Origin: Nitrospira sp. CG24C
GTDB taxonomy: Bacteria; Nitrospirota; Nitrospiria; Nitrospirales; Nitrospiraceae
Assembly: GCA_002869885.2 (NCBI GenBank)
Contig: NEWR02000017.1
Coordinates: forward strand, 164,627-228,626
Direction of reading: 5' to 3'
Length of the DNA stretch: 64,000 bases
In this document: positions 4,146 to 60,444 of the stretch, piece by piece
Layout of the letters: each line of letters begins with the position of its first letter
Numbering within the stretch: the stretch's first letter is position 1
Program-made: the position numbers and the translations under genes
The notes under the pieces: model-generated
What the model was told of the DNA's origin: nothing
Seen by the model: only the letters and a program-made list of their open reading frames with translations
Database searches by the model: none

Positions 4146-4272
4146 GGAAGCTGTTCAAAACGACCGTCCAGCGAGGCCGCAGCCGATGAAAGCACCGGAG
4201 GCGTAGCCCCCGGCTACGTTGAGGATGCTTTCGAGGTGAGAACGACGCTGGCGGTTGTTTTCAACAGCTTCC
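4146..4272. repeat. Large imperfect inverted repeat, family B related
   Basis: The left arm starts GGAAGCTGTTCAAAACGACC and the right arm ends GGTTGTTTTCAACAGCTTCC, an approximately 127-base hairpin in the gap between two convergent genes. The interior carries GGAGGCGTAGCC and CTACGTTGAGGATG. The ends resemble the family B end (GATGCTGAAAAAGTCCGCC). The right end touches the stop codon of the minus-strand gene. It could act as a bidirectional terminator. Confidence 0.7.
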
Positions 4273-6592: not shown

Positions 6593-7099
6593 ATGGAAAC
6601 CACCACATCCCACGAGGCCACACTCATCTACAGCGAGACGCTGCTTCGCCAGGCCGTGTTCGCATTTTGGCGGCGCTCCGTCGGTGTCGGTTTTTTTGTT
6701 GCGCTCCTAATTGCCGCGCTCGGTCTCGTCATACTCGTGGCCCTGGGCCAGTCCTCTTGGATCATCGGTGGGCTTGCAGCCGTACTGTTGGTGGGCATCG
6801 CGTTCGCCATCGTTGTCTATGTCGTTCACTATCACAGATCGCTGCAGAAATTCCGTCAGATGGGTCAGCCGCGAGCCACGTTCCGCGCTGATGAGTCCTC
6901 GTTCACCATGAGTTCGGACATCGGCACAACCACGCTTCAGTGGTCCGCCGTCAAAGAACTGTGGCAGTTCCAAAGCGTGTGGCTTTTTCTGTACTCCAAG
7001 GCACAGTTCAGCACGTTGCCGCTCGCATGCTTGTCACCTGAAGCGCAGGCGCATATTGTGCAGTGCGTTCGAACGGCCGGCGGCAAAGTCGATGGCTAG
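6593..7099 (+). CDS. YcxB-like membrane protein
   Basis: 168 residues. Two adjacent hydrophobic helices at about 30-53 and 58-80 (VGFFVALLIAALGLVILVAL and WIIGGLAAVLLVGIAFAIVV), then a soluble YcxB-type C-terminal domain (TFRADESSFTMSSDIGTTTL, WSAVKELWQFQSVWLFLYS). The function of YcxB domains is unknown. The ATG at 6593 is preferred over the in-frame GTG at 6554, but neither has a strong ribosome-binding site. The gene ends in CTAG and a tandem-unit hairpin follows 12 bases later. Confidence 0.75.
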   Translation: METTTSHEATLIYSETLLRQAVFAFWRRSVGVGFFVALLIAALGLVILVALGQSSWIIGGLAAVLLVGIAFAIVVYVVHYHRSLQKFRQMGQPRATFRADESSFTMSSDIGTTTLQWSAVKELWQFQSVWLFLYSKAQFSTLPLACLSPEAQAHIVQCVRTAGGKVDG

Positions 7100-7111
7100 C
7101 CTGTCGGCGAT

Positions 7112-7202
7112 CCGTGAGACGTGAATCGTTAACCGTGAAACGATCCGGAGGAAGGTTACTCGGCAATCCTACGTTTCACCTTTCACGTCTTACGTTTCAC
7201 GG
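7112..7202. repeat. Intergenic hairpin of CGTGAAA-type tandem units
   Basis: The left arm is made of repeated CGTGAGA/CGTGAAT/CGTGAAA units, the right arm of their complements (ACGTTTCACC, TTTCACGTCT, TACGTTTCACGG), separated by a 30-base loop. It starts just after the YcxB stop codon. The arms pair imperfectly, and each arm alone is a degenerate direct repeat of about eight bases. Confidence 0.7.
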
Positions 7203-7278
7203 CTCCTAGGACGGTGGCTTGTTATACGGAACCAGATCATACATATTTAAGCATCACCGGACGCTTCGGAGCACTTGA

Positions 7279-9564: not shown

Positions 9565-10821
9565 TTAGAGATTCAGCATCGGAAACTTCGGTAACGATGT
9601 CTCGCTGACGCCTGACAGCTTGACGACCACATCGTACAGCTGCTGAACCCGCTCGGCCTTGACCGGCTCGAAGCCGTGGCCGAGGACTGCATGGTTGGCT
9701 GCATCGAGCAGCGGTTTCATCGTCGGCCACTCGCGCAGAAAGGCCTGGCCCATCTGGTCGCCCAATCCAGCCAGCGCCCGAAACTGCGCCTGCAAGGGCA
9801 GCTTGTATTTGCCGTCAAGATCTTCCAGCCAACAAGATCGACAGGTTTCTTGCAGCGCTTGCGGCAATTGCTCCGGCTGGACGTCCCAAGTTTTGATTTG
9901 GTACTGCTTGAACAGTTGCCTCTGGGCAAAGGCTTCGAGCGCGCGCACGAGCGAAACCATGGCAGCTTCCGAATCGTGCAGCCCATGTAGCCTGCGCCCG
10001 GCATGGGCCAGTAGATCGAGGGCCTGCATGTCTTTCACGGGCGCTGGATCGAGGACGAGCTTTTCCAAGAATCCCGCGTTCGCTTTGATGGCTGGTAACA
10101 GCGACGTGAGCCCTGGTGGTCCACCCCACAGAGCCGCCATCTCGAAAGCCTTCACGGCGGTCTTGAGTTTTTCCCAAGCTTGACGATAGTGAAATCGCTC
10201 CCACAGATCGTAGCCATCGGCCAGGTCTCCAAAGGCCCGGTAGAGGGGTTTCTGCCCGCCGCTCACCCGCGCTTCGATCTCGCGGAACAGCTTCGCCGCT
10301 GCGGCAAACAATCTTCGGTTGAACAGCTCACAGCCCTCGCGGCGTGAAATAGAAGCCGCCTCATCCCACGGATTTCCCTGCGTCCATACGAACGGCTGCC
10401 CGGCGATATCGATCCTGTCCTCCTCTTGTCCCTCTCGTGCCGATACCAGCGACACAATTCGCGAACTGAGAGACAAGGTGACCAGCGTCAATGCGCCGGC
10501 CATGGCTGCGGTAGCTCCGGTCACATCGACGACGAGTTCGCCCGGCTGCACCTCCCAGGTACGCAACATCTCTGGGAGCGTCCGGGCAAGCGTCTGGTAA
10601 CAGCCGACAAATTCGCCGGTTTCCGGAAGGACCACCCAGTCCCACCGCCTGGGCAGGTGCTCGATCTTCGGCTGGACCTCGGATTCTACGAGGGCTTTCG
10701 CCCCTTCCGACAATATGAAACAGAGCGAGTCCGGCTGCAAACGATTGATCGAATAGACTGCCGCCGCCGCATGATCGGTGAGCGCGAGCACTAAGGCTTT
10801 GACTGGTTGGTCTTGCGCCAT
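9565..10821 (-). CDS. Orphan CARF-domain protein, TIGR02710-type (CRISPR-associated family)
   Basis: 418 residues. The N-terminal Rossmann-like CARF domain (about 1-150) opens with VKALVLALTDHAAAAVYSIN and has the diagnostic glycine/threonine ligand loop VVDVTGATAAMAGAL at about 97-111. The C-terminal helical half (about 160-418) contains ELFNRRLFAAAAKLF, LYRAFGDLADGYDLWERF and LVRALEAFAQRQLF, as in TIGR02710 proteins. A possible HEPN-like R-X4-H motif is R277-H282, but the assignment is weak. Known CARF proteins bind cyclic oligoadenylates made by type III CRISPR complexes; no cas gene or array is present in this window. The start at 10821 is chosen because the CARF fold begins there; the frame stays open to 11010. 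Divergent from nfeD. Confidence 0.75.
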   Translation of the reverse strand: MAQDQPVKALVLALTDHAAAAVYSINRLQPDSLCFILSEGAKALVESEVQPKIEHLPRRWDWVVLPETGEFVGCYQTLARTLPEMLRTWEVQPGELVVDVTGATAAMAGALTLVTLSLSSRIVSLVSAREGQEEDRIDIAGQPFVWTQGNPWDEAASISRREGCELFNRRLFAAAAKLFREIEARVSGGQKPLYRAFGDLADGYDLWERFHYRQAWEKLKTAVKAFEMAALWGGPPGLTSLLPAIKANAGFLEKLVLDPAPVKDMQALDLLAHAGRRLHGLHDSEAAMVSLVRALEAFAQRQLFKQYQIKTWDVQPEQLPQALQETCRSCWLEDLDGKYKLPLQAQFRALAGLGDQMGQAFLREWPTMKPLLDAANHAVLGHGFEPVKAERVQQLYDVVVKLSGVSETSLPKFPMLNL

Positions 10822-10951
10822 TGCGCGCGGACTATACCATAGGAATGCGTAAAAGCCTTCCGGCTTGACGGTCTCCGGAAACGCGCTTAGACTTTCATGA
10901 CGATCTCCTAATTCTCGCGTAGTTCTTTCGAACATTGAATGAGGCCCGCCG

Positions 10952-11386
10952 ATGATCTGGTGGTATTGGATGCTTCTCGGTCTCGTGCTGCTCGGCATCG
11001 AGATGGTCACACCCGGAGGCTTCTACATTCTATTCTTTGGGCTGGCAGCCCTGATTGTCGGCAGTCTGGCTGGACTGGAGATCGCTCAAGCGGAATGGCT
11101 CCAGTGGCTGCTATTTTCAGGACTCGCGATTCTGTCTCTGCTGATCTTCCGCGGCCCGCTCTTGGCCTCGCTGAAGAAACGGGATAAGGATCTGCCTGCC
11201 GTGGATACACTCGCCGGTGAAAGCGCGATTCCGAGAGAAGACTTGGCGGTGAGCGGGACCGGCAAGGCCGAACTGCGGGGCACCACCTGGACCGCGCACA
11301 ATGCCGGGGCGACCCCCTTAACGAAGGGCCAACGGTGCAAGGTTGAGCGGATCGAGGGACTCACCATCTGGATATCGGCGGAATGA
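10952..11386 (+). CDS. NfeD-like membrane protein
   Basis: 144 residues: two or three N-terminal hydrophobic helices (WWYWMLLGLVLLGIEMVTPG, FYILFFGLAALIVGSLAG, LQWLLFSGLAILSLLIF) followed by an OB-fold C-terminal domain (LAVSGTGKAELRGTTWTAHN, GQRCKVERIEGLTIWI). This is the short NfeD/YbbK type that partners a stomatin-like protein in membrane quality control. The stomatin gene begins 38 bases downstream, confirming the pair. TGAGG precedes the ATG. Confidence 0.93.
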   Translation: MIWWYWMLLGLVLLGIEMVTPGGFYILFFGLAALIVGSLAGLEIAQAEWLQWLLFSGLAILSLLIFRGPLLASLKKRDKDLPAVDTLAGESAIPREDLAVSGTGKAELRGTTWTAHNAGATPLTKGQRCKVERIEGLTIWISAE

Positions 11387-13972: not shown

Positions 13973-14625
13973 CCACACAGCAACTGACCCACAGGTGGAA
14001 GGAACTGAATGGACGCTACTTTGCGGGCCTGCTGCCTCCAATCGAGCTCGTCTGGAGCCGCCGGTTGACCTCCTCGGTCGGCCTGTTCGTGAGTCGTCGA
14101 GGACCGAGACCACGACTGGATCGAGATGGTCTTCGCCCACCGACCAAGCGCGAAATTCGCCTCTCTCTTCCTTTGCTCAAGCAAGCGCTCCAACGAAGCG
14201 AATATGGCGAGCAGGAAATCGTCAACACGCTGGCCCACGAAATGATTCATCAATGGCAATTCGACATCCTGAAGCGCCGGCCGAATCATGGATCGGATTT
14301 TCTCCGCAAGATGACCGAGATGAACCGGGACGGTATGCTGGCCATCACCGTCTACCATTCGTTACAGAAGGAAGTCCTCACCCTCGCGCGATTTTCCTGG
14401 CGCTGCCGGCAATGCGGACGAGTGTACCGGCGCCAACGGCGGACGATTGAGCCGCGGCGGCACCATTGCGGTGTCTGCAGAGGGTCATTAGAGGAAATGA
14501 ACCCGTCACACGTCAATGGTCATGTGTCAACGGTCAATCGAGAAACCGGGTCAGAAAGCCCGAAAGTCGAACCGTCATCAAGTTATAACCGGGACCTTCG
14601 ACTTTCAGACGTGAAGACCGTGTGA
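13969..14625 (+). CDS. SprT-like zinc metalloprotease domain protein
   Basis: 218 residues. Zincin motif HEMIHQWQ at about residue 88 (HExxH with the family WQ), N-terminal WKELNGRYFAGLLPPIELVW, and a C-terminal zinc ribbon (CRQCG..CGVCRG). SprT/Spartan relatives are linked to cleavage of DNA-protein crosslinks in eukaryotes; the bacterial role is open. It starts in a four-base overlap (ATGA) with the preceding gene. The last 40 or so residues are encoded inside an intergenic hairpin repeat and look unrelated to the family, so the ancestral protein probably ended earlier. Confidence 0.85.
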   Translation: MTTQQLTHRWKELNGRYFAGLLPPIELVWSRRLTSSVGLFVSRRGPRPRLDRDGLRPPTKREIRLSLPLLKQALQRSEYGEQEIVNTLAHEMIHQWQFDILKRRPNHGSDFLRKMTEMNRDGMLAITVYHSLQKEVLTLARFSWRCRQCGRVYRRQRRTIEPRRHHCGVCRGSLEEMNPSHVNGHVSTVNRETGSESPKVEPSSSYNRDLRLSDVKTV

Positions 14626-14664
14626 CTTCGAAACGATTGACGGAATGACCTGTGACCTGTGACG
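14504..14664. repeat. Nested hairpin of GTCAA/GTCAC-type tandem units
   Basis: The outer left arm (GTCACACGTCAATGGTCATG and onward to 14540) pairs with the right arm CGATTGACGGAATGACCTGT to 14664. Inside it a second hairpin pairs GAAAGTCGAA with TTCGACTTTC. Each arm is a run of degenerate GTCA-based units. It overlaps the 3' end of the SprT-like gene and the leader of the polymerase gene. Confidence 0.65.
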
Positions 14665-14672
14665 ATGCATCG

Positions 14673-15875: not shown

Positions 15876-16358
15876 ATGCCCACGAAGATCCTGACCAAGG
15901 AGCAACTCCTTCCGCTCTTGCAACAAGCCCGCTCGCAGAAGAGACGGATCGTCTTCACCAATGGCTGTTTCGATCTGATGCATGTAGGCCATACGCGTTA
16001 CCTCCAGGCCGCGAAGGATCTGGGTGATCTGCTAGTCGTGGGTGTCAATGGCGACGCATCCGTCAGGACATTGAACAAGGCGCCGGATCGGCCGATTGTC
16101 TCGGAATCGCAGCGGGCAGAGGTGGTCGCTGCGCTCGGCTCGGTCGATTATGTGACCCTCTTCGATGAACCGGACCCCCGCAGCCTGATCGCCGCATTGC
16201 AGCCGGATATCCTCGTCAAAGGCGGAGATTGGGCGGTAGAACAAATTATCGGCCGCGATATTGTGGAGGCGCGCGGCGGAGTCGTCCGTACCATTCCGTT
16301 GGTTCCAGGCGTTTCCACCACGTCGATTATCGAACGCATTCGCTCAACCACCACTTAG
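15876..16358 (+). CDS. hldC: D-glycero-beta-D-manno-heptose 1-phosphate adenylyltransferase
   Basis: 160 residues, single nucleotidyltransferase domain equivalent to the C-terminal half of HldE (RfaE2). Signature VFTNGCFDLMHVGHTRYLQA with the HxGH nucleotidyl-transfer motif, and DILVKGGDWAVEQIIGRDIV later. It makes ADP-heptose for the LPS core and pairs functionally with gmhA in the same run; the kinase is not in this window. The TAG stop is the first part of a family B repeat end. Confidence 0.95.
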   Translation: MPTKILTKEQLLPLLQQARSQKRRIVFTNGCFDLMHVGHTRYLQAAKDLGDLLVVGVNGDASVRTLNKAPDRPIVSESQRAEVVAALGSVDYVTLFDEPDPRSLIAALQPDILVKGGDWAVEQIIGRDIVEARGGVVRTIPLVPGVSTTSIIERIRSTTT

Positions 16359-16457
16359 CAGGATGCTGAAACAGCTCGCCAGCACAAAGAAGGTTAAGGT
16401 TCAGGCTAAGGTTGAGATAAAGAGAGTCTGATCTTCGCTCAACCTCGACCTCAGCCT
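16355..16457. repeat. Family B element with AGGTT/CAACC hairpin, loop subtype
   Basis: It begins TTAGCAGGATGCTGAAACAG, the family B end, at the hldC stop codon. Then come arms AAGGTTAAGGTTCAGGCTAA and CTCAACCTCGACCTCAGCCT around the loop AGAGAGTCTGATCTTCGC. The same loop appears at 23391, 45264 and 45880. The right arm stops five bases before the mfd ATG, so it overlaps the place where the mfd ribosome-binding site should be. Confidence 0.75.
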
Positions 16458-22576: not shown

Positions 22577-23383
22577 ATGCCGAAGTCAACCGCACGATCC
22601 CGCCGCATGAAGGCCTACTTGATTATTGGCCTCTGCCTCCCGGTCGGCGCGGTCCTCTTCATCTGGTTGCTCATCATGCCCGACGTTTCGGCCTTGCGGA
22701 CGGCCAATCCGCCCACGACAGCCCTGATGGAAGCGCGGCGGGCTCAGGCGCAAGGCCGCAAGATCGAACGCCAATGGGTGTGGGTTTCGCTCTCACGTAT
22801 CTCGCCCCACCTCCGCCAGGCGGTCGTGGCAGGGGAAGATGCGTCGTTCTTCACCCACGAAGGGTTCGATTGGGAGGGGATCAAGGACGCGGCTCTGTAT
22901 AACCTCGAAGCGGGCAAGCTCAAGCGTGGGGGGAGCACCATTACGCAGCAGCTGGCCAAAAACCTGTACCTGTCATCCGAACGGTCCATGCTTCGAAAGG
23001 CGCGCGAAGCGCTGATTACGCGGTCCCTAGAACAGCATCTCACGAAGGAGCGTATTCTCGAGCTGTATCTCAATGTCGTTGAATGGGGGCAGGGTGTCTA
23101 TGGCGCGGAGGCAGCGGCTCGTCACCACTTCAAGAAATCCTCGCATAACTTGACTGCCGACGAGGCAGCATGGCTGGCTGCCATCTTGCCGTCGCCACGC
23201 CGATACGACCCGATTCGAAAAACCATTTTCCTGTCTCGTCGCCACGACCGGATCCTCAAATGGATTACTCGTGGATCTACCCAACCTCCCCAGCTAGAGC
23301 CAGAGCCAAAGCCGGAGCCAGACTCAGAACGAGAGTCAGACCCAGAACCAGAACCAGAGCAAAAAATAGAAACTGAACCGTAA
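22577..23383 (+). CDS. mtgA: Monofunctional biosynthetic peptidoglycan transglycosylase
   Basis: 268 residues. N-terminal transmembrane anchor (about 13-34) then a glycosyltransferase family 51 domain: catalytic Glu at about 87 in VVAGEDASFFTHEGFDWEGI, KRGGSTITQQLAKNLYLS, RKAREALITRSLEQHLTKER and ILELYLNVVEWGQGVYGAE. It polymerises lipid II into glycan strands. The C-terminus carries an unusual 35-residue Glu/Pro/Asp/Ser-rich tail (EPEPKPEPDSERESDPEPEP). The part from W199 onward is duplicated 1.25 kb downstream. Confidence 0.95.
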   Translation: MPKSTARSRRMKAYLIIGLCLPVGAVLFIWLLIMPDVSALRTANPPTTALMEARRAQAQGRKIERQWVWVSLSRISPHLRQAVVAGEDASFFTHEGFDWEGIKDAALYNLEAGKLKRGGSTITQQLAKNLYLSSERSMLRKAREALITRSLEQHLTKERILELYLNVVEWGQGVYGAEAAARHHFKKSSHNLTADEAAWLAAILPSPRRYDPIRKTIFLSRRHDRILKWITRGSTQPPQLEPEPKPEPDSERESDPEPEPEQKIETEP

Positions 23384-23390
23384 CGATATT

Positions 23391-23470
23391 GGGACTGGGC
23401 TGAGGTCAAGGTCGAGCAAAGATCAGACTCTCTGTATCTCAACCTTAGCCTAAACCTCAACCTTCTTCGT
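23391..23470. repeat. Family B hairpin, loop subtype, inverted orientation
   Basis: Arms GGCTGAGGTCAAGGTCGAGC and CTCAACCTTAGCCTAAACCT with the loop reading GATCAGACTCTCTGTATC, the reverse complement of the loop at 16355. It lies between convergent mtgA and VOC genes, and its right part encodes the last residues of VOC copy 1. Confidence 0.7.
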
Positions 23471-26697: not shown

Positions 26698-26742
26698 GGT
26701 TAGTCTGGTTCAACCAAATAAACAAGACAGACCAAACGAACC
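26698..26742. repeat. Hairpin of GGTTAGTCTGGTT-type units
   Basis: Arms GGTTAGTCTGGTT and AGACCAAACGAACC around a short A-rich loop (CAACCAAATAAACAAGAC). It lies nine bases 3' of the dtd stop on the minus strand. The unit is the same as at 1827 and 56362. Confidence 0.65.
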
Positions 26743-26751
26743 AGCTGGTTT

Positions 26752-27198
26752 TCACGCTTCACGGCTATCGAGCACAAAAGTCACCGGTCCGTCGTTCAGC
26801 AGCTCGACCTGCATGTGCGTGGCAAAGACCCCGGTCTCCACATGAGTACCCTGGTCTCGCAGCCCTACCGCAACCTGATCATATAGTCGTTTTGCCTCAT
26901 CCGAGGGCGCCGCATCGTCAAAGCTTGGGCGGCGGCCATTCGCCGTCCGTCCGAGGAGCGTGAACTGGGACACCAGCAAGACCGATCCTCCGTTGTCTAC
27001 TAACGAGCGATTCATTTTCCCCTGTTCATCGGAAAAGATCCGAAGCGTGCGAACCTTCTCGATAAGAAACCGGCCATCCGATTCTCCATCGCCTTTCGCC
27101 ACTCCCAGCAAAACCAGGAGACCAGATTCGATCTGCCCCACGGTCTTGCCCTCAACGCGAACCGACGCACTCGTCACCCGCTGAATCACGGCTTTCAT
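26752..27198 (-). CDS. dtd: D-aminoacyl-tRNA deacylase
   Basis: 148 residues, standard length. Dtd removes D-amino acids (and glycine) mischarged on tRNA. Motifs: [20 protein letters not shown], active-site [23 protein letters not shown], and the Gly-Pro motif NDGPVTF near the C-terminus. It is three bases downstream of ogt, so it is part of a murJ-ogt-dtd operon. Confidence 0.96.
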
Positions 27199-29854: not shown

Positions 29855-29981
29855 CATGATGCTGAAAAAACCCGCCAGCTTCGTTCTTGCAAATCGTGAA
29901 AAGTAAGACGTGAAAGGTGAAACGTGGGACTGCGGGGCTCTCTTCCTCAGAAGCCTTTCACGTGTAGCGATTCACGTCTCA
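29851..29981. repeat. Family B end plus CGTGAAA-type hairpin
   Basis: It starts CTAGCATGATGCTGAAAAAA, then CCCGCCAGCTTCGTTC, the family B end, overlapping the stop codon of the preceding gene. Then arms CGTGAAAAGTAAGACGTGAA and CCTTTCACGTGTAGCGATTC around a GC-rich loop. It sits between convergent genes. Confidence 0.7.
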
Positions 29982-35401: not shown

Positions 35402-35519
35402 GCAGGAACCCGTGATATGGATGTTCAGGCCGCCGCATCCTAGCAAAAGGCCCACGGGGGAACAAGCCGAGGGATATCATCAATGAAATAGTTGGCCCGA
35501 GAGGTTCTCTACATAGAAC

Positions 35520-44496: not shown

Positions 44497-45267
44497 ATGG
44501 ACGAGGACAACCATGTTTTTTCAGCTGATGTACGGCCTGCCCGATGGTTGATGCGTCTGAGAACGATAGCGAGACTTACGCGACTAGTGCTAGCGGGATG
44601 CATCCTGCCATGCCTGCCTCTCGTGAGCGAGGCGGGAGATGTCTTCACGGGGTTTCAGATCGACAATAAGAGCCAGTACTTTGGCTACCTCGGCGTCAGA
44701 ACCCCGATTTTACAGGATTCAGCCGTATCCGGCTTGTTCGTTCAGGCCATATCTTCTGGGCTTGGCTATAACTTTAAGACCAATGGACAACTCCTGGATG
44801 CCAATATCCAATCTATTGTTCCGTCGCTCGGCATTACCAAAACACTCGGTAGCTGGACCCTTTCCGCCCTTGCCGGCCCTCAGATGCGCAGAATCGAAGA
44901 ACAGCGGCTGAACGCGAGCAACACGATCAATTATCAGGCCGGCGTGTACGGCCAACTTGAAGCGCTCTATTGGCATGAAAAATGGAACCTTCACGCCATA
45001 GGGTCATATGCTGACCTCGATAATTTCTTCTGGAGCCGGCTACGCGGGAAAGTGCTGGCCTATAAGCCCGATAAGAGCTGTTGCGCGACGTATCTCGGCT
45101 GGGATGTGACAGGAATGGGTAATGCCGATTTCCGAGGGATCATGACGGGGCCCATCGCTGAAGTTCAGGTCAGCAAAGTGTTTTTGCTCGTCCGGGGTGG
45201 ATACCAACACAATACGACCTTCCACAGCGGGGCTTATGGAGGATTTGAAATCTATTTCCCCTTCTAG
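44497..45267 (+). CDS. BcsS-like outer-membrane beta-barrel protein
   Basis: 256 residues. Signal peptide (LTRLVLAGCILPCLPLVSEA) and then alternating beta strands GFQIDNKSQYFGYLGVRTPI, WTLSALAGPQMRRIEE, HAIGSYADLDNFFWSRLRG, ending in an aromatic EIYFPF, as in an outer-membrane barrel. The sequence resembles the BcsS cellulose-biosynthesis family, and its position 64 bases after bcsA supports this. Start is uncertain: ATG at 44497, 44464 or 44551. It ends in CTAG, where a family B repeat begins. Confidence 0.65.
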   Translation: MDEDNHVFSADVRPARWLMRLRTIARLTRLVLAGCILPCLPLVSEAGDVFTGFQIDNKSQYFGYLGVRTPILQDSAVSGLFVQAISSGLGYNFKTNGQLLDANIQSIVPSLGITKTLGSWTLSALAGPQMRRIEEQRLNASNTINYQAGVYGQLEALYWHEKWNLHAIGSYADLDNFFWSRLRGKVLAYKPDKSCCATYLGWDVTGMGNADFRGIMTGPIAEVQVSKVFLLVRGGYQHNTTFHSGAYGGFEIYFPF

Positions 45268-45380
45268 CCCGCAGGATGCTGAAAAAGTCCTCCAGCACGG
45301 AGAAGGTTGAGGTTCAGGTCAAGGCTGAGAAAAAGGTGTCTGATCTTCGCTCAACCTTGACCTCGACCTCAGCCTGCTGA
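45264..45380. repeat. Family B element, loop subtype, left of MEKHLA gene
   Basis: Starts CTAGCCCGCAGGATGCTGAA, joining a family A-like end to the family B end, then arms GAGAAGGTTGAGGTTCAGGT and CTCAACCTTGACCTCGACCT around the loop GTGTCTGATCTTCGC. A second copy in opposite orientation lies at 45880, on the other side of the MEKHLA gene. Confidence 0.75.
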
Positions 45381-45879: not shown

Positions 45880-45992
45880 GAAGGTTAAGGCTCAGGTCGA
45901 GGCTGAGATAGGGAGAGTCTGCTCTTCGCTCAACCTTGACCTTGGCCTCAACCTTCTCCGTGCTGGCGGACTTTTTCTAAGCATCCTGCTAG
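45880..45992. repeat. Family B element, loop subtype, right of MEKHLA gene
   Basis: Arms AAGGTTAAGGCTCAGGTCGA and CTCAACCTTGACCTTGGCCT around GAGAGTCTGCTCTTCGC, then CCGTGCTGGCGGACTTTTTC and GCATCCTGCTAG, the complement of the family B end including CTAG. It is in the opposite orientation to the copy at 45264, so the pair forms an inverted frame around the MEKHLA gene. Confidence 0.75.
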
Positions 45993-46123
45993 GCGGTGTA
46001 CCACGTCCGGTCGGTCAACGCAAGAATATGGTGAGGGCTCTTGTGCAGACCATAGGAGGACTCTGTATAATGTGCATCCTCTCGGAGATACCATCCGGAG
46101 AGACCGATCATTGAGGAGTATGT

Positions 46124-47527
46124 ATGGCCGCGCAGACCCTCTTCGACAAAATATGGGAGTCTCACGTCGTCCGTTCAGAGCCAGACGGGACCACCCTGCT
46201 CTATATCGATCGTCAGCTGGTTCACGAAGTAACATCGCCTCAGGCATTTGAAGGGCTCAAGCTCTCGGGCCGACGGCCGCGACGGCCTGGTGTCACGTTG
46301 GCGGTGCCGGATCACAACGTTCCGACTACCGATCGGACCCTGGGCATCGCCGATCCCCTCAGTGCGATACAAATTAGGACGCTGGAGGAAAATTGCCGTG
46401 ACTTCGGCATCACGCTCTTTGGTATGAACGACATCCGCCAAGGTGTGGTGCACGTGATCGGACCAGAACAGGGCTTTACCCTGCCTGGGACGACCATCGT
46501 ATGCGGCGATTCACACACGTCGACACATGGAGCGTTCGGCGCATTAGCCTTCGGCATCGGCACCAGCGAAGTGGAGCATGTGCTGGCCACCCAGTGCTTG
46601 GTGCAGAAACGACCCAAGACTATGGAGATTCGCGTCGACGGGGTGCTGCCGGCGCTCTGCTCGGCAAAGGACGTGATTCTGGCGATCATCGGCAAAATCG
46701 GCACAGCCGGCGGAACCGGCTATGTCATCGAGTATACGGGCTCAGCGATCCGCGCCCTCAGCATGGAAGGGCGTATGACGCTCTGCAATATGTCGATCGA
46801 GGGCGGCGCACGCGCCGGGATGGTCGCGCCGGACGAGCACACCGTCGCCTATATCAAAGGGCGCCCGCTAGCTCCAAAGGGAGAACTGTTCGAGCAGGCC
46901 GTGCGTGCGTGGCAGCAGCTCAAGACCGATGCGAACGCGACCTACAATACGACTGTCACGATGCGGGCCGAGGACATCGCGCCGCAAGTCAGCTGGGGCA
47001 CGAGTCCCGGGATGGTGACCGGCATCGATCAACGAGTGCCGGACCCGCGCACGATCACCGACGAGAACCAGCGCCAGGCTACAGCACGGGCGCTGGAATA
47101 CATGGGCCTCACCCCGGACATGCCCATGACCGATATCAAGATCGACAAGGTGTTCATCGGATCCTGCACGAATGCGCGTATCGAAGATCTTCGCCTGGCC
47201 GCGAGCTTGGCGAAGGGCAGGCACGTCGCAAAGTCCGTTCACGCGATGGTCGTGCCCGGTTCCGGTCTCGTGAAGCAGCAGGCCGAACAGGAAGGGCTCG
47301 ACCGATTGTTCAAAGAAGCGGGATTCGAGTGGCGGGAAGCAGGCTGCAGTATGTGTCTGGCAATGAACGCCGACGTGCTTCAGCCTGGAGAGCGCTGCGC
47401 CTCGACCAGCAATCGTAATTTCGAAGGGCGACAGGGGGCTGGCGGCCGGACTCATCTTGTGTCGCCGGCCATGGCAGTAGCCGCAGCAGTCGAAGGCCAT
47501 TTTGTCGATATCAGGACATGGTCATGA
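46124..47527 (+). CDS. leuC: 3-isopropylmalate dehydratase large subunit
   Basis: 467 residues, standard for LeuC. Aconitase-family enzyme isomerising 2- to 3-isopropylmalate in leucine synthesis. 4Fe-4S cysteines are in [12 protein letters not shown] and [11 protein letters not shown], and the third cysteine lies in [26 protein letters not shown] precedes the ATG. A hairpin of CGCCTAACG units separates it from leuD by 108 bases. Confidence 0.97.
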
Positions 47528-47530
47528 GAA

Positions 47531-47627
47531 TCGTGAGGCGTAAGGGGTTAGGCGTGAGGGGATCGATGACGGATTGCAACAGATATCTCGCGCCTGACGC
47601 TTCACGCCTAACGCCTAACGCCTAACG
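47531..47627. repeat. Hairpin of GGCGTAA/CGCCTAACG-type units between leuC and leuD
   Basis: The left arm CGTGAGGCGTAAGGGGTTAG (to 47561) is a run of G-rich units; the right arm contains three consecutive CGCCTAA-type units, TTCACGCCTAACGCCTAACG to 47627. The arms are complementary over about 25 bases. It lies three bases after the leuC stop and eight before the leuD ATG. GAGGAA within its right end may serve as the leuD ribosome-binding site. Confidence 0.75.
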
Positions 47628-47635
47628 AGGAATTT

Positions 47636-56076: not shown

Positions 56077-56361
56077 GATGTGCGGTTGGATACCTGTGCG
56101 CAAAGCAGCCTCCATAAGAAGCCTGAAAAGCCTCAAGATCCATGCCGAAATGGTTCTCCGCTAACGTGCGGATAGGACAGGGGAAACGGTGGTTATGCCT
56201 TATACCGTGCTGTGGTGCGATCTGCACAGAGTGGACTTTTGGGAACTGTTGCCCCTCACGGGTGGCACAGTTCTTTCACGATGAAAACTTCTCGGAAGTT
56301 ATCAATAAAAGAATCGGGAACGGCTGCGCAGGCTCAGGCGAGGCGGGTTGGCAGGGTTTAG
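56077..56361. other. Intergenic stretch upstream of the transglycosylase
   Basis: About 285 bases on the far side of the lytic transglycosylase start, up to the hairpin at 56362. It contains an alternative start region for the transglycosylase and no recognisable gene. Confidence 0.45.
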
Positions 56362-56436
56362 CTGGTCTATCCAGTTAGTTTGGTTCAACCAACAAACCGG
56401 ATAGACCGAATAGACCAAATGAACAAGGCTGGCTAG
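56362..56436. repeat. Hairpin of GGTCTAT/GGTTAG-type units
   Basis: Left arm CTGGTCTATCCAGTTAGTTT GGTTCAACC and right arm AACCGGATAGACCGAATAGA through CCAAATGAAC are complementary by units. The same GGTTAGTTTGGTTCAACC unit is found at 1845. It ends with CTAG, which is the stop of the LOG-like gene on the minus strand. Confidence 0.7.
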
Positions 56437-56942
56437 AGCAGATCGCCGATCAGCTTCACCGCCTCTTCAGGCGAGGCAGCGGCATGGACGAGATGGGGCG
56501 CGAGATTTTTGAACAGGCCCACCCCGGCCTTGTCGGCCCCCAACAGAATGACGGTCTTCTTTGCCTTGAGCGCTAATGCAACTTCTGAAACCGTCCCAGT
56601 ACCGCCGAGCCCGCAAGCCACGATGATGTCGCTGGACATGACGTTCACGTTGTTGCGCGCTTGGCCCAGGTCCGTGACAATCGCCACATCCACATACCGG
56701 GACACCCGTGCTTTGCCATCCGGGAGAATCCCGATGGTCAAGCTGCCGGGCACCGACTTCGCCCCCTCACTGGCCGCGTCCATCACGCCGCTCGCACGTC
56801 CTCCTGTCAACACCACCCACCCTTGACGCGCGATGAGTTCTCCCAAAGTTTTGGCGTCGGCCAATTCCCGGAGACCGGCTTTGGCTGGGCCCATGACACC
56901 GATCACTGGTTTTCTGGTCGATTGCCGAATCGGACGTTTCAC
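56433..56942 (-). CDS. LOG-like (TIGR00725 type) nucleotide-binding protein
   Basis: 169 residues. Rossmann-like SLOG fold: PVIGVMGPAKAGLRELADAK, LTGGRASGVMDAASEGAKS and the loop ACGLGGTGTVSEVALALKA. Members are called LOG or DprA/SLOG-like and may bind nucleotides or nucleotide messengers; no enzyme activity can be assigned. The GTG at 56942 with TGAGG upstream is preferred over the GTG at 56975. The TAG stop is within a CTAG at the edge of a hairpin repeat. Confidence 0.8.
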   Translation of the reverse strand: MKRPIRQSTRKPVIGVMGPAKAGLRELADAKTLGELIARQGWVVLTGGRASGVMDAASEGAKSVPGSLTIGILPDGKARVSRYVDVAIVTDLGQARNNVNVMSSDIIVACGLGGTGTVSEVALALKAKKTVILLGADKAGVGLFKNLAPHLVHAAASPEEAVKLIGDLL

Positions 56943-59909: not shown

Positions 59910-59930
59910 CGATTTTCCCCTAACGCCCGC

Positions 59931-60050
59931 GTGAAACGTCAAATGTGAAATGTTTTGGAAGAAGAGCACACGATAGTCCTACGTTTCACTTTTTGCGTCT
60001 CACGTTTGACCTTTCACGTTTTTCGAGAGCGACCTTTTCAGCATCCTGCC
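59931..60050. repeat. CGTGAAA-type hairpin with family B end
   Basis: Left arm GTGAAACGTCAAATGTGAAA and right arm TACGTTTCACTTTTTGCGTC through CACGTTTGACCTTTCACG, followed by CCTTTTCAGCATCCTGCC, a family B end. The end lies five bases from the stop codon of the lipoprotein gene at 60055. Confidence 0.7.
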
Positions 60051-60054
60051 AGGT

Positions 60055-60444
60055 TTACTGCGATCGTCCGTCCTGATCGATGTTTCGAATAAAGACTGCG
60101 CGGCCCCTGTCATCCACAAAGGCTTCGATCCGATCTCCGACATGGGCCGGCCGATCGATTCGAGTATTTTCGTCATGCGACACGCGATGTTCGACGCCAC
60201 TCACGTCCTGAAGCACATAGGCCCCACCCTCGACCGCCGTCACCTGTCCTGGCAGAGATAAGATATTGGTCGGCATAGTGGGCCGCATCTGGCCGGTTGG
60301 TTGGGCTCCCAACGTCCCCCACACGATCCCCTGTCCAAGATCCTCTTGCTTCGAAGTTCCCACAATGTTGCAGCCGGCGCCCAAGAGACTCATTCCCAGG
60401 ACAATCACGATACAGCACCTTGTCATCCACACCATGTCTATCAT
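60055..60444 (-). CDS. Small lipoprotein
   Basis: 129 residues. Lipobox VLGMSLLGAGC with the lipidated Cys at about 25. The mature chain has SLPGQVTAVEGGAYVLQDVS and GDRIEAFVDDRGRAVFIRNI, suggesting a small beta-barrel (OB or SH3-like) fold. No family named. A family B repeat follows the stop immediately. Confidence 0.65.
   Translation of the reverse strand: MIDMVWMTRCCIVIVLGMSLLGAGCNIVGTSKQEDLGQGIVWGTLGAQPTGQMRPTMPTNILSLPGQVTAVEGGAYVLQDVSGVEHRVSHDENTRIDRPAHVGDRIEAFVDDRGRAVFIRNIDQDGRSQ

What the first reader, a model, noticed from the sequence alone, without database searches (positions are those of the whole stretch)
7112..7202. Intergenic hairpins built from short tandem units that differ by locus
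At least ten intergenic sites hold imperfect inverted arms, each arm itself a degenerate tandem of 6-8-base units: CGTGAAA (7112, 29895, 59931), GTCAA/GTCAC (14504), AGGTT/CAACC (16355, 23391, 45264, 45880), GGTTAG/GGTCTAT (26698, 56362), GGCGTAA/CGCCTAA (47531). The units vary but the architecture is preserved, and nearly all lie within a few dozen bases 3' of a stop codon. That suggests selection for structure rather than sequence, or a copying process that generates tandem units.
Basis: partly seen in the sequence, partly recalled or inferred. Interest (0 to 1): 0.7.

Follow-up and report, generated by a model that had tools for sequence, protein, structure and literature searches.

The report
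Swappable hairpin inserts after Nitrospira genes
In this Nitrospira-like genome many genes are followed by short hairpin-forming DNA inserts whose arms are built from small repeated words; some sit inside a tiny mobile element, which makes them look like spreading repeats rather than purpose-built transcription stops.

Summary
In 864 kb of this Nitrospiraceae genome, 186 strong intergenic hairpins were found (6.0 per shuffle); 103 of 165 long-armed ones have internally periodic arms. In co-directional gaps they lie a median of 23 bp after the stop. Units form 17 clusters, the largest (56) a 9-mer.

The interpretation needs revising. (1) Two layers exist. One is a ~200-bp MITE (end GCAGGATGCTGAAAAAG, TA flanks) that often starts one base after a TAG/TAA stop and contains a ~123-bp palindrome with compensatory changes. 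The other is tandem-unit hairpins (TUHs), mostly free-standing, some beside a MITE end. (2) The TUHs tested are not shared: the leuC-leuD hairpin is missing from 29 of 29 relatives examined. (3) Upstream of mfd, a relative has the identical MITE left end but the palindromic core where this genome has a TUH. A second locus shows a similar exchange. (4) Arms share a unit, but variants are only weakly mirrored; G:U does not exceed A:C. RNA-level selection is not shown.

Convergent heptamer arrays near stops are published for Xanthomonas. New here are the many unit types, the MITE link and the core exchange. The transposase and the process that makes TUHs remain unknown.

The parts
4148..4270 (-).
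   Evidence: inverted repeat I3; row 1 of alignment A1
7109..7205 (+). tandem-unit hairpin, 7-mer CGTGAAA family, 9 bases after the stop at 7099
   Evidence: 0 of 300 shuffles, lag 7; loop like five other copies, by eye
14504..14665 (.). long imperfect hairpin with GTCAATG-like arms and an inner stem at 14549-14619
   Evidence: inner stem P 0.06, lag 8 P 0.023; outer arms read by eye
16360..16383 (+). MITE left end, one base after the TAG stop at 16356-16358
   Evidence: 2 mismatches to consensus; identical in relative L305
16391..16462 (+). tandem-unit hairpin, 6-mer AGGTTC, occupying the interior of the MITE
   Evidence: tandem array 16391-16413; stem P 0.003; relative L305 has the A-type core here
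23398..23456 (+). tandem-unit hairpin, 6-mer, after the stop at 23383
   Evidence: stem P 0.063, lag 6 P 0.003
26698..26742 (-). short tandem-unit hairpin, 9-mer GGTYTRTYT-like, after the minus-strand stop at 26752
   Evidence: stem P 0.05, arms of 12
29856..29879 (+). MITE left end, one base after a TAG whose frame is open for 126 codons
   Evidence: 2 mismatches
29895..29976 (+). tandem-unit hairpin, CGTGAAA family, joined to an A-type left arm
   Evidence: 0 of 300 shuffles
45273..45296 (+). MITE left end after the TAG at 45265-45267
   Evidence: exact match; 3 of 3 relatives have 11-13 bases between the aligned protein ends instead
45301..45378 (+). tandem-unit hairpin, 6-mer AGGTTC
   Evidence: 0 of 300 shuffles, lag 6; absent in 3 of 3 orthologous gaps
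45880..45956 (-). tandem-unit hairpin, 6-mer
   Evidence: 0 of 300 shuffles; absent in 10 of 10 orthologous gaps
45964..45987 (-). degenerate MITE left end next to that hairpin, preceded by TAGC on the minus strand
   Evidence: 3 mismatches over its first 15 bases; sequence
47531..47628 (+). tandem-unit hairpin, 7-mer GGCGTTA, between leuC stop and leuD ribosome site
   Evidence: 0 of 300 shuffles, lag 7; absent in 29 of 29 relatives
56332..56439 (-). tandem-unit hairpin, 9-mer family, abutting the minus-strand stop at 56433
   Evidence: 0 of 300 shuffles, lag 9; relatives have MITE copies with other cores after the same stop
59930..60018 (-). tandem-unit hairpin, CGTGAAA family
   Evidence: P 0.003, lag 7
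60024..60047 (-). MITE left end next to it, 7 bases after the minus-strand stop at 60055
   Evidence: 1 mismatch over its first 15 bases

Best explanation
These are two interlocking kinds of non-autonomous palindromic DNA repeat in Nitrospiraceae. (a) One is a ~200-bp MITE: its ends are inverted repeats of GCAGGATGCTGAAAAAG, it is flanked by TA, and its left part is a ~123-bp near-perfect palindrome. It inserts at TA, so the left end (GC or AC) turns that TA into, or sits on, a TAG/TAA stop; this is why many copies start one base after a stop. (b) The other is the tandem-unit hairpin (TUH): two convergent arrays of a degenerate 6-9 bp unit around a loop, with the G-rich strand pointing inward in nearly all. 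TUHs arrive whole at gene ends, alone or in place of the MITE's interior. They are tolerated where they do not break genes or promoters. Their arms then decay largely independently. Shown: the families, placement, presence/absence between species, TA flanks, core exchange at two loci, and phase-specific unit conservation. Inferred: transposition of the MITE by an unidentified TA-targeting enzyme in trans, and spread of TUHs by copying rather than by de novo slippage at each site.
For: MITE left end: 114 copies in this genome at <= 2 mismatches, reversed control 0. It occurs in 85 of 295 phylum genomes: 77 of 79 in the same family, 8 elsewhere with 1-3 copies. Length and TA: of left-right end pairs 200-209 bp apart, 27 of 47 are followed by TA; at 120-129 bp 4 of 109 (pairs, not elements). 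Stops: 40 of 59 left ends follow TAGC (27) or TAAC (13); in 31 of these 40 the frame ending there is open >= 60 codons (8 and 0 in the other frames). TGA is the commonest stop, 247 of 664. Gain/loss: leuC-leuD hairpin absent in 29 of 29 relatives. Upstream of mfd 9 of 22 loci carry the left end, 13 do not. L305 (94% identity over 84 residues) has the same left end with an A-type core where this genome has a 6-mer TUH. After the stop at 56433, G318 and G153 have a divergent MITE end with A-type core, G085 the same end with a degenerate 7-mer-like core, this genome a 9-mer TUH (G085 core read by eye). TUH families: 17 unit clusters among 103. The 9-mer is patchy in the genus, 3 to 585 pattern hits in 10 genomes. 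Six of 11 CGTGAAA copies have a similar loop, by eye. Units: in the 9-mer G2 and T3 are 98% conserved, position 6 is A/G 46:46 and position 8 C/T 44:54. The 5' arm is G-rich in 64 of 68 TUHs of co-directional gaps, C-rich in 2.
Against: No autonomous transposase was found. DDE_3 hits occur in 15 of 26 genus genomes; in 24 fetched loci no hit is bracketed by two good MITE ends (best: L330, 1 and 5 mismatches, 2 kb apart). G077 has 126 MITE ends and neither DDE_3 nor Y1_Tnp hits. Loops within the 9-mer family share little (0.092 against 0.032 between families), which fits de novo formation almost as well as copying. 80 of 103 TUHs have no MITE end nearby by a loose test (23 have; by a stricter test 15), and their facing stops are near background (20 of 64 TGA). 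Core exchange is seen at two loci only. In 374 kb around leuC of 11 genus relatives only 3 periodic hairpins were found, so TUHs are not abundant in all members. Position-specific unit conservation suggests selection or a recognition rule that plain neutral decay does not give.
Confidence: 0.62

Rival explanations
1. The hairpins are selected transcription terminators, mRNA 3' end stabilisers or translation brakes, and any sequence that folds will do.
For: Enriched after stops and between convergent genes. The MITE palindrome has AAAAAG...CTTTTT around a GC stem and many compensatory pairs. REPs within 15 nt of a stop are reported to stall ribosomes (PMC12306157, passages).
Against: G:U mismatches do not clearly exceed A:C (TUH 125 v 109, P 0.16; A-type 1 v 9; other hairpins 28 v 31). 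Only 2 of 68 TUHs in co-directional gaps are followed by T4 or more within 14 bases, but the non-periodic hairpins give 1 of 43, so this test hardly discriminates. At five window sites no TUH was seen in the orthologous gaps examined (3 to 11 each), while a terminator-like hairpin at 35519 was kept in 2 of 5. One lies inside the leuC-leuD pair.
Confidence: 0.15
2. Each array is made on the spot by slippage plus fold-back copying at a short inverted repeat, so unit and arms arise together at each locus.
For: 17 unit clusters, several with one or two members. Loops differ strongly within families. Both arms share a unit and are slightly more alike than arms of different elements. Different cores appear inside one MITE end.
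Against: One 9-mer unit accounts for 56 of 103 TUHs and recurs in other genera, with the same invariant positions across 116 arms here. Arms are not mirror copies of one another.
Confidence: 0.17
3. The arrays are inward-facing clusters of binding sites for a DNA-binding protein (nucleoid protein, gyrase or DNA-uptake receptor), placed at gene ends by function.
For: Phase-specific conservation with invariant GT in the four families tabulated, and near-constant polarity.
Against: Unit words differ widely between clusters, some without GT, and pattern hits vary from 3 to 585 within one genus. No protein was looked for.
Confidence: 0.08

Closest known systems
GGGAATC / GGGGA(C/T)T heptamer repeats of Xanthomonas and Nostoc (PMC4692102; sections 10 and 15 and passages read)
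   Same: Degenerate heptamer arrays with fixed and free positions, close after stop codons, more common between convergent than divergent genes, and in Xanthomonas 70 and 75 convergent pairs that can form stem-loops
   Different: One G-rich, quadruplex-forming unit family described per genome, 83% kept at the same gene context between two Xanthomonas species. Here 17 unit clusters, mostly 9- and 7-mers without G-tracts, not found at the orthologous sites examined, and some lie in a MITE
MITEs such as the Correia element (review PMC10969869, passages read; its TA duplication is recalled)
   Same: Short, many copies, terminal inverted repeats, TA flanks, presence/absence between species
   Different: Frequent seat one base after TAG/TAA, a ~123-bp inner palindrome, and an interior that can be a tandem-unit hairpin
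BrickBuilt MITE of Porphyromonas gingivalis (PMC4596501, abstract and outline read)
   Same: A MITE that contains tandem repeats
   Different: 23-bp direct repeats in one array, not two convergent arrays forming hairpin arms
TAACTGA repeats of Beggiatoaceae (PMC4679880, passages read)
   Same: Intergenic heptamer direct repeats
   Different: Mostly upstream of start codons; a single inverted case reported
REP/BIME elements and RAYT (PMC3733652, PMC2817692: search listings only; PMC12306157: passages)
   Same: Palindromes concentrated after genes
   Different: No link to a Y1 transposase found; ends are TA-flanked inverted repeats
Cyanobacterial STRR heptamers (recalled; one lag-7 hairpin among 10 in 50 kb of Trichormus plasmid NC_007410, 20648-20782)
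   Same: Heptamer array, here with a G-rich 5' arm
   Different: Only one example examined

Membership tests
MITE | terminal inverted repeats at both ends | tested here: met
   left and right end pairs with a second peak at 200-209 bp (47 pairs)
MITE | target-site duplication | tested here: met
   TA after the right end in 27 of 47 pairs of 200-209 bp against 4 of 109 at 120-129 bp; left ends preceded by TAGC/TAAC in 40 of 59. Exact restoration of one TA in an empty site was not shown
MITE | many dispersed copies and empty sites in relatives | tested here: met
   114 copies; 13 of 22 loci lack it upstream of mfd
MITE | autonomous relative with matching ends | tested here: inconclusive
   DDE_3 and Y1_Tnp searched; no hit bracketed by two good MITE ends
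Convergent heptamer arrays (Xanthomonas type) | degenerate heptamers in convergent pairs after stops | tested here: met
   lag 7 in 32 of 103 TUHs, lag 9 in 63; polarity 64 of 68; the 9-mer majority departs from a heptamer
Convergent heptamer arrays (Xanthomonas type) | G-tracts able to form quadruplexes | tested here: not met
   four of the largest clusters (9-mer, GTGAAAC, GTTCGAG, GTTCTGA; 78 of 103 TUHs) hold no GGG in their units; some small ones do
Convergent heptamer arrays (Xanthomonas type) | mostly kept at the same genes between species | tested here: not met
   no TUH in 3, 3, 10, 11 and 3 orthologous gaps at five window sites; no species as close as the Xanthomonas pair may have been compared
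Intrinsic terminator | T-tract directly after the stem | tested here: inconclusive
   2 of 68 TUHs and 2 of 14 A-type, but also only 1 of 43 other hairpins
REP/RAYT | linked Y1 transposase | tested here: not met
   one Y1_Tnp in this genome, no MITE end and only one weak hairpin (score 12) in its 3.3-kb locus; none in G077
Integron attC site | integrase gene and cassette array | not tested
   considered because GCCTAAC in 47531-47628 resembles an attC core (recalled); dispersal makes it unlikely

The most novel reading that the evidence does not exclude
Tandem-unit hairpins are a distinct class of element whose heritable rule is a format (two inward-facing arrays of a phased 6-9 bp word, GT fixed in the main ones) rather than a sequence. 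They arise when a palindrome such as the MITE core is cut or stalls replication and is resynthesised by slippage-prone snap-back copying. Words can then be exchanged, and successful words spread through the genome.
Probability: 0.15. Interest if true: 0.8.

Novelty: new variant of a known kind. Interest (0 to 1): 0.52.

Why it matters
Short hairpins after genes are usually read as terminators. Here a large share look like mobile or replaceable DNA that differs between related species. An insertion rule (TA plus G or A gives a stop codon) could place elements exactly at gene ends. The core exchange gives a natural system for asking how tandem-built palindromes are made. The repeats occur in many nitrifier genomes known from metagenomes, where they may disturb assembly and terminator prediction (inference).

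Tried and rejected
RAYT/REP origin: one Y1_Tnp in this genome, not flanked by the element, and none in G077, which has 126 ends. IS630-type partner: 24 loci with DDE_3 hits were scanned; several hold MITE-end matches of 1-5 mismatches, none brackets the gene with two good ends. Autonomous copy: one search lists 21 rows of end pairs longer than 460 bp with TA on both sides; I read two (1,456 bp in L258, 2,740 bp on contig C2). They hold an aminotransferase-like gene and other frames, judged by eye without a family search; the rest were not read. Known RNA family: no Rfam match in the window. G:U excess: not found. The reversed-pattern control for the 9-mer is useless because the unit reads the same backwards.

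Literature: searches pairing Nitrospira with palindromic intergenic repeats, inverted repeats and terminators gave 0 papers, with MITE and intergenic 1, with REP 5. From their listings none describes these elements, but a table row in PMC12306157 counts predicted palindromes in Nitrospira moscoviensis (passage). Only open-access papers are held.

Limits: the hairpin scan allows no gaps; gene starts are rough; A1 uses 28 of 29 full-length copies (one cut short left out) that share ancestry and were chosen by matching ends; the named loci were chosen by the MITE end, so their TUH density (9.6 per 100 kb) is biased, and the relatives' loci near leuC (0.80 per 100 kb) are one region. The 29 leuC relatives are the best-matching of 67 with a hit.

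Full report
Check of the observation. The 11 sites were scored against shuffles. Eight have stems at P <= 0.003 and three are marginal (0.05 to 0.063); internal period had P < 0.03 at 11 of 11. The wider test used the window plus 800 kb of the same genome, home-made gene calls (664 genes) and an ungapped stem score. It found 186 hairpins in 171.8 kb of intergenic DNA against 6.0 per shuffle, densest between convergent genes (1.89 per kb) and sparsest between divergent ones (0.56). Of 165 with arms of at least 16 bases, 103 are periodic (3.3 expected), at lag 9 in 63, 7 in 32, 8 in 5 and 6 in 3. A 50-kb E. coli control, scanned whole, gave 2 hairpins, none periodic; the same whole-sequence scan gave 256 hairpins and 120 periodic in the 864 kb.

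The genome. The window is G000:C9:164627-228626 of a 2.99-Mb genome. Its MITE end is exact in at least 114 stretches of named genomes; the 80 listed are titled Nitrospira, Nitrospiraceae, Nitrospirae or Nitrospirota.

Layer one, a MITE. It opens a palindrome of 120-124 bp in 28 aligned copies. RNAalifold predicts 25 pairs, 12 with changes on both sides; two-sided cells number 37, one-sided 6, broken or gapped 21. The copies were chosen by matching outer 8 bases; outside these, 7 of 17 pairs have two-sided changes, in 23 cells. A second inverted end lies about 200 bp from the first: at 200-209 bp, 27 of 47 right ends are followed by TA; at 120-129 bp, 4 of 109. I read this as a TA-inserting MITE whose left part is the palindrome. 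The link of TA duplication to the Tc1/mariner-IS630 type is recalled, and no transposase with these ends was found.

Seat at stop codons. Of 59 left ends, 40 are preceded by TAGC (27) or TAAC (13) and 23 start exactly one base after a called same-strand stop. For the 40, the frame closed by that TAG/TAA is open for at least 60 codons in 31, against 8 and 0 in the other frames. TGA is the commonest stop overall, 247 of 664. Insertion at TA with G or A as first element base would explain this; the stop is then either reused or made. At 45268 three relatives have a stop at the same place without the element, so it was reused there.

Layer two, tandem-unit hairpins. The 103 fall into 17 unit clusters. 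The largest is the 9-mer (56), then GTGAAAC (11), GTTCGAG (8) and smaller ones. In the 9-mer, G2 and T3 are 98% conserved, T7 94%, T9 92%, while position 6 is A/G 46:46 and position 8 C/T 44:54. CGTGAAA, GTTCGAA and AGTTCTG show a similar mix of fixed and free positions. The 5' arm is G-rich in 64 of 68 hairpins in co-directional gaps, C-rich in 2. This polarity holds on both strands, since a palindrome looks the same from each.

What the arms do not show. Each arm resembles its partner (0.578) little more than another element's arm (0.536) in 40 of 54 nine-mer hairpins; for 8 CGTGAAA hairpins it is 0.598 against 0.522. Both gaps are inflated by the choice of good hairpins. G:U mismatches are 125 against 109 A:C (P 0.16). 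Only 2 of 68 are followed by a T-run, but so are only 1 of 43 non-periodic hairpins, so that test says little. Neither compensatory evolution of the tandem arms nor a terminator role is shown; neither is excluded.

Turnover. The leuC-leuD hairpin is missing in 29 of 29 relatives examined (the best-matching of 67): 25 have spacers of at most 20 bases, and the four longer ones hold no stem scoring above 8. At four other window sites (29895, 45301, 45880, 56332) no tandem-unit hairpin was found in 3, 3, 10 and 3 orthologous gaps; one gap at 29895 holds a MITE palindrome. Upstream of mfd, of 22 loci examined (2 weak paralogues left out; one far match in L292 taken as chance), 9 carry the MITE end and 13 do not. 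L305 (94% identity, but over 84 residues only; genome 75% complete) has the same 24-base left end, then the palindromic core and a tail; this genome has the 6-mer hairpin instead, and the two join again at TACACYATGTC. After the minus-strand stop at 56433, G318 and G153 carry a divergent MITE end with the A-type core, G085 the same 21 bases and then a degenerate 7-mer-like core (read by eye; below the score cut), and this genome a 9-mer TUH without a clear MITE end. These are the evidence for core exchange: two loci. The 9-mer is patchy: 585 pattern hits here, 3 to 431 in nine other genus members, and in the other 285 genomes 0 to 5 except 14 with 6 to 96.

Relation to known systems. PMC4692102 (passages and two sections read) already reports degenerate heptamer arrays near stops in Xanthomonas with 70 and 75 convergent pairs. 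The kind is therefore known. The Nitrospira case differs in the number of words, the 9-mer, the lack of G-tracts in the main words, the absence at orthologous sites and the link to a MITE.

Mechanism, and how sure. MITE with TA insertion: likely (about 0.85). TUHs as spreading DNA repeats rather than terminators or on-site products: about 0.6. The process that makes a palindrome from two convergent arrays, and why GT is fixed in the main words, is not explained by anything I ran.

Noticed in passing
window 9565-11010 (-): Encodes a TIGR02710-family CRISPR-associated CARF protein; no CRISPR array was looked for nearby.
   Followed up: no
L258:13408-14863: An aminotransferase-like gene (by eye) lies between two MITE ends, 1,456 bp in all, with TA on both sides: possible gene capture between MITE ends.
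   Followed up: partly
L102:9064-9270 and several other A-type copies: The loop of the MITE palindrome can carry further repeated modules, such as GAGCTGTCTTGGCAGCTCGGGATGGGCGGGTGA or a ~90-base insert, so elements are nested.
   Followed up: no
G000 9-mer family: The 9-mer unit GGTYTRTYT reads the same backwards (mirror-symmetric), which made the reversed-pattern control useless; whether this matters is unknown.
   Followed up: no
L277:20648-20782 (Trichormus plasmid NC_007410): A hairpin with lag-7 G-rich 5' arm and C-rich 3' arm, like the Nitrospira ones.
   Followed up: no
window 45989-46165 (-): A 58-codon frame ends in TAG right before a MITE left end; possibly a real small gene upstream of leuC.
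   Followed up: no
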